From contig NZ_VFJB01000005.1 of assembly GCF_008362905.1 (NCBI RefSeq), positions 186,001-250,000 of the forward strand: a DNA stretch of 64,000 nt. The letters are read 5' to 3'. The translations under genes were made by a program, and so were the position numbers. Origin of the DNA: Deferribacter autotrophicus (GTDB lineage: Bacteria; Chrysiogenota; Deferribacteres; Deferribacterales; Deferribacteraceae). Under the pieces are notes generated by a model. It searched no databases. It was given only the letters and a program-made list of their open reading frames with translations, and was not told the DNA's origin. Positions 40,509-56,571 of this stretch are shown here, piece after piece (within the stretch, counting starts at the first letter, position 1; every line of letters starts with the position of its first letter).

Positions 40509-40706
40509 TTGGCGTCACCCCATTTTTTTGGATACAGAGCAAGGATAGCTTATTAATTTCAATAAATTATGCAAAAAAAAAACAGAGAGAAAATAACTGC
40601 TTCATTCTCGTGGTACATCAAGTGCTACTGCGAGGTAAATCCCCATAAAACCGCCGTCAATGGCGGTTTTATGGGGATTTAAACCCGTCAGATATTTTCT
40701 CTCTGG
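40509..40706 (+). repeat. Family 1 inverted-repeat element, copy 3 (right end lost)
   Basis: Left end TTGGCGTCACCCCATTTTTTT, shared 3' of it with copy 4 (TTATTAATTTCAAT(A/G)AATTA). Inside: outer stem CAGAGAGAAAATA/TATTTTCTCTCTG, hairpin with arms GTGGTAC/GTGCTAC (imperfect), hairpin AAATCCCC/GGGGATTT with core AAAACCGCC/GGCGGTTTT. The right terminal repeat is missing: the sequence turns into a coding remnant at about 40710. No target duplication can be identified. Confidence 0.85.
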
Positions 40707-40716
40707 TATATATAAA

Positions 40717-40821
40717 CGAGGTTTTGCGGATTTTATTGTTAGAAAGTATAATATAGAAGTTGATAAAGATTTTGTTGAACTTACAGAATCTCATATTAAG
40801 CTGAAATTTCTTCCTGTTTAG
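40717..40821 (+). pseudogene. Orphan 3' coding remnant downstream of a family 1 element
   Basis: After the truncated repeat an open frame reads RGFADFIVRKYNIEVDK, then a 17-residue stretch ending in KLKFLPV and TAG at 40819. The composition looks protein-like, but there is no start codon or upstream continuation. It overlaps the 3' end of rplY (opposite strand) by 26 nt. I do not recognise the family. It is probably the tail of a gene lost with the right end of the element. Confidence 0.4.
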
Positions 40822-53474: not shown

Positions 53475-54462
53475 TTTTACAATAAAACAGATTAATTCCC
53501 CTTTTGAGGATACAGCATTTTTTGTTAGAAATGTTTACAAAAGACAGGCTTTTTTGCTTGATTGTGGCAGACTTGGTAATATAGAAAATTCTGAAATTCT
53601 TAGTATTTCAGATATTTTTGTTTCACATACACATATTGACCACTTTTATGGCTTTGATAGAATTTTAAGAGGTTCTCTAAGATCTGATAAAAAAATCAGA
53701 ATTTTTGGCCCTCCTGGTATCATAAATAATGTAAGTGGTAAGATACAGGGATACACCTGGAATTTGATAAAAAATTATACATTTAAAATTGAAGTGGTTG
53801 AATTACGTGGTGATGGTAAGATAAAACAAGCGTTTTTTAATGCGGAAGATGGTTTTATCCCTTATTTTGAGGAGAATGTTATAGATAGAATTGAGCTTGA
53901 GGACGGTTTTATTTTAGAATATGAATTTTTTGATCATGACATAATTTCTGTGGGTTATAGAATTAAAGAAGATAAACATGTGAATATAAAGAAGGATGTA
54001 TTTGATAAGTATGGCTATATACCAGGGCCTTGGCTCAGCACTTTGAAAGCAAAACTTAGAAACTGCACCGATTTGAATGAAATGATTCCAGTAGAAACCG
54101 TAGATGGAACGAAAGAAATTGCACTTAAACAGCTTGAAGAAGAGCTTGTTATATATAAAAAGCCGCAAGATATTACATATATTACCGATATTGCACCAAC
54201 TTATGAAAATTTTGTAAAAGCTGTGAATTTTGCTAAGAATTCATCTATATTACTTATTGAGGCAATGTTTTTAAAGTGTGATATAATAGATGCAATTTAT
54301 AAAAAACATTTGACAGTTGAACTTGCCAAAGAAATTTTTGCATCAAGTAATTCTATTTATGTTAAATTTTTTCATTTTTCTCCAAAATACGAAAAGGATA
54401 AGGGAAAGTTTTTTGCAAATTTGTATTCAGGTATTTCAGATAAGATTTTAAAAACATTATAA
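53464..54462 (+). CDS. RNase Z-like metallo-beta-lactamase-fold protein
   Basis: 332 residues. SHTHIDHFYGFDRILRG has the HxHxDH metal motif; a later YITDIAPTYEN and FHFSPKYEKDKG complete the metal site in RNase Z/Elac-like order. The middle is long and diverged, so true tRNA 3' processing is not assured. The start overlaps the APH-kinase gene by 11 nt. It is the last gene of this + strand run before a repeat-filled gap. Confidence 0.8.
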   Translation: MRHNFTIKQINSPFEDTAFFVRNVYKRQAFLLDCGRLGNIENSEILSISDIFVSHTHIDHFYGFDRILRGSLRSDKKIRIFGPPGIINNVSGKIQGYTWNLIKNYTFKIEVVELRGDGKIKQAFFNAEDGFIPYFEENVIDRIELEDGFILEYEFFDHDIISVGYRIKEDKHVNIKKDVFDKYGYIPGPWLSTLKAKLRNCTDLNEMIPVETVDGTKEIALKQLEEELVIYKKPQDITYITDIAPTYENFVKAVNFAKNSSILLIEAMFLKCDIIDAIYKKHLTVELAKEIFASSNSIYVKFFHFSPKYEKDKGKFFANLYSGISDKILKTL

Positions 54463-54500
54463 ATATTTACAGTAATTTTTGAGCATATCTTATATCTATT

Positions 54501-54838
54501 CTGGAGTCACCCCATTTTTTTGACATAGAGCTAGAAAATGTTATTAATTTCAATGAATTACTCAAAAAAAGCCAGAGATAAAATATCTTCCTCATTCTCA
54601 TGGCACGTCCAGTGCCACTGCGAGGTAAATCCCTCTAAAACCGCCGTCCATGGTGGTTTTATGGGGATTTTCAGGGTGTTGCACATGGTGCCAAGATACA
54701 TCCTGTGAGCTATTTTAGCAGTTATTATTTATTATTTTAAAAGCTGATGTTTATCTTTTGTGCTACACCCTGAACCCGAAAAATGTTTTTCCGTAAACCA
54801 GATATTTTAAATTTTTGTAAAAAATGGGGTGATTCCAG
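54501..54838 (+). repeat. Family 1 inverted-repeat element, copy 4, with 9 bp target duplication and nested insert
   Basis: 338 bp with ends CTGGAGTCACCCCATTTTTT and AAAAAATGGGGTGATTCCAG (18 of 20 complementary), flanked by perfect direct repeats ATATCTATT at 54492-54500 and 54839-54847. The left half resembles copy 3; the right half carries CCTGAACCCGAAAAATG, identical to copy 2, so it looks mosaic. It contains a second inverted-repeat unit (54671-54773). The right end is 12 bp before the -35 box of the next gene. With the target repeats it fills 54463-54885. Confidence 0.92.
54671..54773 (+). repeat. Nested 103 bp inverted-repeat element inside family 1 copy 4
   Basis: Ends TCAGGGTGTTGCACA and TGTGCTACACCCTGA are complementary at 14 of 15 positions. 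The unit is absent from the same place in copies 1-3. The middle is AT-rich without an ORF. No clear target duplication is seen, so the exact boundaries are uncertain. Confidence 0.65.
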
Positions 54839-54850
54839 ATATCTATTTCA

Positions 54851-54885: not shown

Positions 54886-56571
54886 ATGAGGATAAATTTA
54901 TCGTTAAAATGGAAATTGATAATCTTTTATTTTTTCTTGGGTATGTTGCCGTTAATTCTTATTTCGTTCTATTCATCTTACATTGCTTCAAAATCTATTA
55001 ATAGAATAACAGAAAAGCAGATAAACGAGTTGATTGTGGGGATTTCTAACCAGATAGTTTCAACCTATGACAAAATGAAGGGCGATATTTTCCAAATGGC
55101 TGATAATCCAATGATTCAGCTTTCTTTTTTACAGTTTAAATATGGTCAGAGAATGAATATGGTGAGGGATAAATTAGCGTTATATAGGAGTAATAATAAA
55201 TTTTATGAAAGGATTACACTGTTTACCGGTGATGGTGAACCGGTTTTAACGGTTCCTTCAACTTACAAAAATTTATACGAGCATGTAGACAAACTGTTTT
55301 TGCGCGAGGTGTTTAATTATGACTTTTATTTAAAAGAAGATCTGGTGGGTGATAAGTTTTTAGTTATGATTAAAAGAGTATATGATTTTGAAGATAATAC
55401 TTTGCCTGTGGGGCTGTTGGTTTTTGAAGTTCCCGCCAATAAGGTTTTGGCATATTTTATCAATTTGGATTTAGGTTATAAGGTTTCAAAAGTAGTGGAA
55501 AATACAGATGGAAAGATTATTTACAAAACAGCAGATACAAATGAAATAGTGGGTTCAAAAGTTAAAATATATAAAGGTGAAGTTCCTTTTCTAAATTGGG
55601 TAATAAAATTGGGAATCCCTGAGAATGTCTTATTTAATGATGTTTATGAACTTCGGAATAAAAGTTTGATATTTTCTATTATTGTCAGTTTCGTCGCTTT
55701 TATCGTTGCTCTTTACTTTGTGCAAAGGTTTTTAAAGCCTATTAAAGAAATAATTTATGGCACAGAAAAATTTTCACATGGTGATTTTGACTACGAGATA
55801 AAATTGAAAAGCGGTAAAGAATTAAAAATTTTGGCTGAAGCGATTAACAAAATGGCTAAAAGGCTTCAGAAAAGACAAAATGAACTGATACAGGCGAATA
55901 AGCTAGCTTCATTGGGGCTTTTGGCTGCCGGAATCGCTCATGAGGTGAAAAATCCATTGGCAGGAATAAGGGCAACTATACAATTGATTTATAAAAGATC
56001 CAATGACACAAATGTAAAAAATATGGCTGAAAATGTGATCAGCGAGATAGACAGATTAAATAAAATCGTTGTTGATTTACTTCAGTTTTCAAAGCCTGAT
56101 GAAATTCATAAGGAGCGTTGTTTATTGGATGAAATTATAGAAAAGTCTATCAATCTTGTAAGAAAAAAAATGGATGAAAAGAGGATTACGATTTTAAAAA
56201 GTGTTGAAAACTGTTATGTCATAGCGGATTGTGATCATCTTTTACATATTATTATAAATATTTTATTGAATGCTATATCAGCAGTAGAAGATGAAAAAGG
56301 GGAAATAAAAATTATAGGGAGAGTTAGTGGCTCTAAGTATATTTTAGAGATTTGTGATAATGGAATAGGAATTTCTGAGGATAAAATTGAGCATATTTTC
56401 GATCCTTTTTTCAGTTTAAAAGAGGATGGTACAGGACTCGGATTATCTATAGTTTACACTCTGATGCAGAAAAATGGTATAAAATATGAGATTAAAAGTA
56501 AAAAAGGTGAAGGTACTGTATTAAAATTAATTTTTGAGGATTTTATAAATGAAAAGCATAGCGATAGTTGA
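54886..56571 (+). CDS. Membrane sensor histidine kinase with HAMP domain
   Basis: 561 residues: membrane helix 1 (about 10-31), a periplasmic sensor domain of about 220 residues (Cache-like; includes FYERITLFTGDGEPVLTVPS and VVENTDGKIIYKTADTNEIVG), membrane helix 2 (about 258-280), a HAMP domain, and the kinase core with His about 352 in GIAHEVKNPLAGIRATIQL. The ATPase domain has ILLNAISAVEDEKG, ICDNGIGISEDKIEHIF and DGTGLGLSIVYTLM. It overlaps the response regulator gene by 23 nt, so the two form one two-component system. Expressed from the promoter just upstream. Confidence 0.93.
   Translation: MRINLSLKWKLIIFYFFLGMLPLILISFYSSYIASKSINRITEKQINELIVGISNQIVSTYDKMKGDIFQMADNPMIQLSFLQFKYGQRMNMVRDKLALYRSNNKFYERITLFTGDGEPVLTVPSTYKNLYEHVDKLFLREVFNYDFYLKEDLVGDKFLVMIKRVYDFEDNTLPVGLLVFEVPANKVLAYFINLDLGYKVSKVVENTDGKIIYKTADTNEIVGSKVKIYKGEVPFLNWVIKLGIPENVLFNDVYELRNKSLIFSIIVSFVAFIVALYFVQRFLKPIKEIIYGTEKFSHGDFDYEIKLKSGKELKILAEAINKMAKRLQKRQNELIQANKLASLGLLAAGIAHEVKNPLAGIRATIQLIYKRSNDTNVKNMAENVISEIDRLNKIVVDLLQFSKPDEIHKERCLLDEIIEKSINLVRKKMDEKRITILKSVENCYVIADCDHLLHIIINILLNAISAVEDEKGEIKIIGRVSGSKYILEICDNGIGISEDKIEHIFDPFFSLKEDGTGLGLSIVYTLMQKNGIKYEIKSKKGEGTVLKLIFEDFINEKHSDS

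What the first reader, a model, noticed from the sequence alone, without database searches (positions are those of the whole stretch)
54671..54773. Element nested within an element, and mosaic copy 4
A 103 bp unit with its own inverted ends (TCAGGGTGTTGCACA / TGTGCTACACCCTGA) interrupts family 1 copy 4. The right half of copy 4 shares CCTGAACCCGAAAAATG and following bases with copy 2, while its left half matches copy 3. This suggests a second mobile family and recombination or gene conversion between copies.
Basis: seen in the sequence. Interest (0 to 1): 0.5.

Follow-up and report, generated by a model that had tools for sequence, protein, structure and literature searches.

The report
Nested mobile element in recombinant MITE
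A short mobile-looking unit really does sit inside another short jumping element, and this copy is stitched together from two versions of the outer element, in a genome where an RNA-guided jumping gene also lands inside that same outer element.

Summary
Confirmed, and richer than reported. Copy 4 (window 54501-54838) is a complete MITE with 20-bp terminal inverted repeats and a 9-bp target duplication (ATATCTATT). In the stretches fetched, its family ("MITE-1") has 44 end-paired copies in this genome (probably Deferribacter autotrophicus); 21 of 44 have exact 7-14 bp duplications. Its ends match a 1467-bp IS4-like IS in other genomes of the order; no such transposase was found in its own.

The inner unit (54671-54773) has five other copies, all at the same point of MITE-1, a linker between conserved hairpins. 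Four of the six are 93-96% identical inside arms only 66-80% identical, so it joined these hosts after they diverged. Its ends resemble an IS5-family IS and small elements elsewhere in the genus, but it has no target duplication and no free copy. How it passes between hosts is unresolved.

Copy 4 is a mosaic: left arm 91% to one subtype, right arm 91% to another; its long stem pairs 13 of 21, where 21 relatives pair 16-21.

Outside the window, IS110 copies with predicted bridge-RNA guides lie in MITE-1 at the guide-matched site; one element holds all three layers. Known processes, unusually clear combination.

The parts
54492..54500 (.). Left copy of the 9-bp target-site duplication ATATCTATT
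54501..54838 (+). Copy 4: whole MITE-1 element (338 bp, of which 101 bp is the net inner insertion)
54501..54520 (+). Left terminal inverted repeat CTGGAGTCACCCCATTTTTT
54571..54591 (+). P1 stem, left arm (subtype A)
54592..54599 (+). TCATTCTC, the place where IS110 copies are inserted in other MITE-1 copies (unoccupied here)
54592..54625 (+). P2 hairpin region of the conserved core
54626..54670 (+). P3 hairpin of the conserved core (19 of 19 pairs in copy 4); its last base overlaps the inner unit as drawn
54670..54774 (+). Inner hairpin unit (reported 54671-54773); arms 54670-54685 and 54759-54774
54778..54798 (+). P1 stem, right arm, of another subtype; pairs only 13 of 21 with the left arm
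54819..54838 (-). Right terminal inverted repeat
54839..54847 (.). Right copy of the 9-bp target-site duplication

Best explanation
Copy 4 is a recombinant, nested miniature transposon. The outer MITE-1 (237 bp without the insert) was moved by a DDE transposase acting in trans that recognises CTGGNGTCACCCCATTTTTT ends and usually duplicates 8-9 bases of target. Shown: ends, duplications, and an autonomous IS with nearly these ends in relatives. Inferred: that this kind of enzyme acted here, since no such gene was found in this genome. The inner hairpin unit comes from a second element type whose ends resemble those of an IS5-family IS (shown: similar ends; inferred: descent). It entered a MITE-1 at the linker between its hairpins. 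It has since travelled as a passenger when carriers transposed (inferred from two carriers with their own, different 9-bp duplications) and has been exchanged between MITE-1 subtypes (near-identical units in strongly diverged hosts; copy 4 joins a subtype-A left half to the unit and a right half of another subtype). I think the exchange is mainly recombination or gene conversion at the hairpin bases; that step is inferred and is the weakest one.
For: Six copies at one position of MITE-1. Duplications: 21 of 44 exact, 30 of 44 with at most one mismatch, against 0 and 9 of 1892 for wrongly paired flanks. Autonomous 1467-bp IS with such ends and 8-11 bp duplications, four of four examined, DDE_Tnp_1 in the one tested. 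Inner units 93-96% identical in four carriers whose arms are 66-80% identical. Copy 4: left 91.2% and right 90.9% to different elements; stem pairing 13 of 21 against 16-21 in 21 references, restored to 20-21 when either arm is paired with arms of the matching subtype. IS5-family IS and small elements with similar ends.
Against: The inner unit has no target duplication and no free copy, so its descent from the IS5-type family rests on the ends and a 24-base end match. In C6:230585 and copy 4 the left border lies exactly at the unit, with no sign of a longer conversion tract, which fits insertion better than conversion. No donor unit closer than 96.2% is in the assembly for C8. The mobilising transposase was not found in this genome. 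Two of the six carriers have no duplication by the test used (C6:54653, C6:230585), one has a damaged end and one is cut by a contig end.
Confidence: 0.62

Rival explanations
1. The inner unit is itself mobile and inserts, without duplicating target, only at the P3/P1 linker of MITE-1; its spread among subtypes reflects repeated site-specific insertion.
For: Exact same point in several host subtypes; C8 and its unfilled relatives differ by the unit and almost nothing else (99.4% and 100% arms); exact left borders in different flanks GGGGATT, GGGAACT, GGAAACC; no copy elsewhere.
Against: No recombinase is known for it; ends of the same type elsewhere make 5-7 bp duplications; copy 4's different right arm needs recombination anyway.
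Confidence: 0.25
2. The unit is ancestral to MITE-1 and has been lost precisely many times through its hairpin.
For: Hairpins are prone to deletion (general knowledge); unfilled sites are exact.
Against: No direct repeat longer than one base at the borders; units are far more alike than their hosts; 27 of 33 compared elements lack it without any remnant at the junction that I could see.
Confidence: 0.07
3. MITE-1 is a deletion derivative of the IS110 element found inside some copies, and the inner unit is a variable part of its guide RNA.
For: The 1.5-kb copies have MITE-1 ends and an IS110-family gene inside.
Against: The 1251-bp IS110 core is 100% identical in 8 copies while the arms around it differ by subtype; MITE-1 has duplications with or without IS110 inside; the guide-like leader lies in IS110, not in MITE-1; IS110 relatives in another family sit outside MITE-1.
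Confidence: 0.02

Closest known systems
Bacterial MITEs mobilised by DDE transposases (outer element; IS4-like ends)
   Same: Short, no long reading frame, terminal inverted repeats, 8-9 bp duplications, many copies, autonomous IS with nearly the same ends in relatives.
   Different: Carries a strongly covarying three-helix core and serves as a site for other elements; no transposase of its own kind found in its genome.
IS5 family IS and small elements with similar ends (inner unit)
   Same: Ends agree at 12 of 14 bases with the left end of the C10 IS (AAGGATGTTGCACA against CAGGGTGTTGCACA; sequences); hairpin form.
   Different: No target duplication, no free copy, interior unlike the other small elements apart from a 24-base end match.
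IS110 family with bridge RNA (PMC11208160, passages read) and IS that target REPs (PMC1525189, abstract read)
   Same: DEDD plus Transposase_20 protein, long leader before the gene and short other end, leader segments matching left and right target, repeats as targets.
   Different: The target is the core of a MITE with DDE-type ends and duplications; two variants in one genome with similar tips carry different guides for different repeats.

Membership tests
MITE (outer element) | Terminal inverted repeats | tested here: met
   20-bp arms in copy 4, one mismatch
MITE (outer element) | Target-site duplication | tested here: met
   9 bp in copy 4; 21 of 44 exact in the family
MITE (outer element) | No transposase gene, multicopy | tested here: met
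   No frame of 80 aa or more overlaps 54501-54838; 44 end-paired copies selected
MITE (outer element) | Autonomous partner with the same ends | tested here: met
   In two other genomes of the order; not found in the own genome
IS4 family (partner of the outer element) | Transposase above a curated family cut-off | tested here: not met
   Best NCBIfam model IS4_4 59 bits against cut-off 250; Pfam DDE_Tnp_1 40.7 above 23. IS4-like only
IS5-derived MITE (inner unit) | Ends like an IS5-family IS | tested here: met
   12 of 14 bases with the IS at C10; the IS is IS5_4 by NCBIfam, 262.6 bits against cut-off 140
IS5-derived MITE (inner unit) | Target-site duplication | tested here: not met
   Net +101 bp and no repeat beyond one base
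IS5-derived MITE (inner unit) | Independent genomic locations | tested here: not met
   All six copies at one point of MITE-1
IS110 family (element inside other MITE-1 copies) | DEDD and Transposase_20 domains | tested here: met
   PF01548, PF02371 and NF033542 above cut-off
IS110 family (element inside other MITE-1 copies) | Guide segments matching both sides of the target | tested here: met
   Right guide 8 of 8 in 16 of 19 copies; own mean 7.7, cross 5.75; 8 of the 19 are identical
IS110 family (element inside other MITE-1 copies) | Bridge RNA made and recombination guided by it | not testable with these tools
   Needs experiment; the donor loop was not analysed

The most novel reading that the evidence does not exclude
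MITE-1 is a structured landing pad with two addressed docking points. A bridge-RNA-guided IS110 enters at TCATTCTC, a hairpin module enters exactly at the P3/P1 linker, and the MITE's DDE-type ends then scatter the loaded composite to new sites with 8-9 bp duplications. A guide-restricted element would thereby gain untargeted dispersal by riding a MITE. Five near-identical IS110-loaded MITE-1 copies with five different duplications (C1:37311, C3:87592, C4:205960, C8:117279, C9:106868) would be products.
Probability: 0.25. Interest if true: 0.6.

Novelty: new member of a known kind. Interest (0 to 1): 0.38.

Why it matters
It gives a natural series for two questions. First, how small hairpin elements and IS110 choose sites inside repeats: one genome holds filled and unfilled copies of one target in several subtypes, and IS110 variants with similar tips but different guides matched to different repeats. 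Second, how mosaic MITEs arise: the stem of MITE-1 is a built-in test, because recombinants between subtypes break its pairing, as copy 4 does.

Tried and rejected
First idea, that MITE-1 is an IS110 derivative carrying a guide RNA: dropped after (identical IS110 core in differing arms; the target duplications belong to MITE-1). Rfam search of four loci gave no match at E up to 1. A protein search for IS110 relatives in genome contigs confirmed none and the inner-unit pattern had no exact match there; the tool says that the window's own genome may be left out in both. The 16-base end in viral contigs gave 13 hits, not followed up. Mutator-family transposases (8 hits) were checked for MITE-1 and inner-unit ends without result. 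Structure prediction, fold search, promoter, tRNA and PHROG tools were not used. Searches used wrong registers for the stem count (53 also stopped with an error) and are superseded. In one search the minus-strand loci were not turned round, so its L006 and L013 rows are misaligned; searches use turned copies.

Full report
SETTING. The window is G000:C5:186001-250000 of a 2,535,300-base, 10-contig assembly. Its contig C1 has 319,692 bases, equal to the N50 given for Deferribacter autotrophicus SL50 in PMC6896113 (passages read), so I take it to be that species; no tool named it. Copy 4 lies between a 332-codon frame ending at 54462 and a 561-codon frame starting at 54886.

OBSERVATION. The inner unit is real, with arms 54670-54685 and 54759-54774. 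Five other near-full-length copies exist in the genome, at 96, 96, 93, 88 and 75%; a seventh hit is a 24-base match (C3:224473) at the end of an element of the second type. All six full copies also match the outer element around them. The 58 relatives searched gave only one weak 38-base hit.

OUTER ELEMENT. In the stretches fetched around known hits, 44 end-paired MITE-1 elements were selected. Of these, 21 have exact duplications of 7-14 bases (9 of 8 bases, 7 of 9), 30 have this or at least 8 bases with one mismatch, and 14 have neither. Wrongly paired flanks gave 0 and 9 of 1892. Copy 4 has ATATCTATT on both sides. The end pattern, at up to 2 mismatches, occurs in 16 of 59 genomes, the own one included, with 0 or 1 control matches per genome and direction. 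In two of these genomes, four 1467-bp elements with such ends have duplications of 8, 11, 9 and 8 bases and longest open stretches of 460-471 residues; a 215-bp element has 10 bases. One of the four frames was tested: it has a DDE_Tnp_1 domain and is nearest to IS4-type models, below their cut-offs. The own genome has three PF01609 hits, none with these ends within the fetched flanks. The sister species G001 has no MITE-1 ends by the pattern.

CORE. Of 32 cores, 21 were aligned; 5 carriers and 6 near-duplicates were left out. RNAalifold gives 51 pairs in a three-way arrangement P1, P2, P3, 27 of them with a double change. Counted on that structure, 95.6% of cells pair against 81.6% in shuffles, with 184 double-change cells against 61; slid structures pair 40-52%. 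The structure came from this same alignment and related copies count several times, so these figures flatter it. The inner unit enters in the linker after P3. One core without MITE-1 ends occurs in G001, between genes (143 bits with a model of the core); of the 50 sources given to that model search, only the window and this locus matched. Whether the core acts as RNA or as a DNA hairpin is open.

INNER UNIT AGAINST HOSTS. Among C5 (copy 4), C8, C6:54653 and C6:230585 the unit is 93-96% identical pairwise, the left arms 66-72% and the right arms 69-80%. C6:41614 is at 87-93% to these four and C9 at 77%. The nearest unfilled relatives of C8 have arms 99.4% and 100% identical to it, those of C6:230585 88.2% and 89.1%. 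So the unit joined hosts that had already diverged. Two carriers have clear, different duplications (C5 ATATCTATT, C8 ATATTTTCA). C6:54653 and C6:230585 have none by the test used, C6:41614 has a damaged left end and C9 is cut by a contig end.

ENDS OF THE INNER UNIT. Elements with similar ends lie elsewhere: G001 has five end matches at one mismatch against 0 in the control. In the 15 loci scanned for pairs I read perfect 5-7 base duplications by eye in five (L152 AATTT, L148 AAAAT, L091 ACCTT, L056 AATTT, L082 AAATATT) and AATAAA in L150; others, such as L146, L080, L093 and L087, show none. L056 shows such an element nested in another MITE-1 copy (C4:20991) at a different point. An IS5-family IS with ends AAGGATGTTGCACA / AAGGACATTGCACA is on C10; it shows no clear duplication. 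The inner unit itself has no duplication, so kinship rests on the ends plus the 24-base match at C3:224473.

MOSAIC. Copy 4's left arm is 91.2% to C9:156231 and 90.5% to C5:177178; its right arm is 70.6% and 63.5% to the same two, but 90.9% to C9:258764. In the P1 stem copy 4 pairs 13 of 21; the 21 references pair 16-21 (mean 19.9) and four other carriers 17-20. Copy 4's left arm pairs 21 of 21 with the right arms of three subtype-A elements, and its right arm 20-21 of 21 with left arms of other subtypes. A string joined from two contig ends scored 12 of 21; it has a one-base gap in register and may not be one element.

IS110 IN MITE-1 (outside the window). Eight copies with an identical 1251-bp core all lie in MITE-1 at the same point, in at least four subtypes of arms. 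Junctions are TTTTTCTCAT|CGTATATT and ACACGGAA|CATTCTC. A second variant (three copies, 65%) lies between CGTCAT or TGTCAT and CATTGCGAG, in one case inside an element with ends of the second type. Leader segments match both flanks and differ accordingly. In 19 copies from two genomes the right guide pairs 8 of 8 in 16, and 6, 6 and 7 in the rest; own mean 7.7, cross mean 5.75. The left guide has an own mean of 8.1 of 10, cross 6.55. Eight of the 19 are identical, so these are not 19 independent cases. The C8 element (1610 bp) holds MITE-1, IS110 and the inner unit inside one 9-bp duplication. Five near-identical loaded copies (C1:37311, C3:87592, C4:205960, C8:117279, C9:106868) have five different duplications: either the loaded MITE moved, or IS110 entered a recently amplified subtype.

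LITERATURE. Bridge RNAs of IS110 (PMC11208160, passages) and insertion of IS into REPs (PMC1525189, abstract) are known. Searches for IS110 with MITEs, nested bacterial MITEs, and Deferribacter with IS110 (listings only apart from the papers named) showed no paper that, from its listing, describes this nest; the library lacks most subscription journals.

VERDICT. Nesting and mosaicism are ordinary processes, here unusually well documented by copy number and by the stem. The route of the inner unit between hosts is the open point.

Noticed in passing
L116-L124 (G000); C8:117279-118888: IS110-family element, 8 identical copies, all in MITE-1 at TCATTCTC; its leader holds segments matching both flanks.
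   Followed up: partly
L125-L127 (G000): Second IS110 variant (65%) with a different guide, in CATTGCGAG repeats; one copy is between ends of the inner unit's type.
   Followed up: partly
L177, L186 (G010): IS110 relatives with a changed right guide TTCGAGATG; L177's right flank CATCTCGA matches it fully, L186's 7 of 8.
   Followed up: partly
L191:1479-1624 (G001): MITE-1 core without MITE-1 ends, between two genes of the sister species.
   Followed up: partly
window 40509-40750: Copy 3 lacks the right terminal repeat, so it seems truncated on the right.
   Followed up: no
C9:91031-91447 and C6:191683-192098 (G000): MITE-1 copies with a different insert (GGGGGGTTACCCCCC-type hairpins) near the same P3/P1 linker.
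   Followed up: no
C3:317575-318032 and C3:32311-32747 (G000): MITE-1 copies filled with CATTGCGAG / GAAGCAATCT hairpin repeats.
   Followed up: no
L256:115-329 (G002): 215-bp element with MITE-1-like ends and a 10-bp duplication but a different hairpin cargo.
   Followed up: no
C4:1-258 and C9:258764-259133 (G000): Two contig ends hold the two halves of an IS110-loaded MITE-1 with a divergent inner unit; they may be one element broken in assembly.
   Followed up: no
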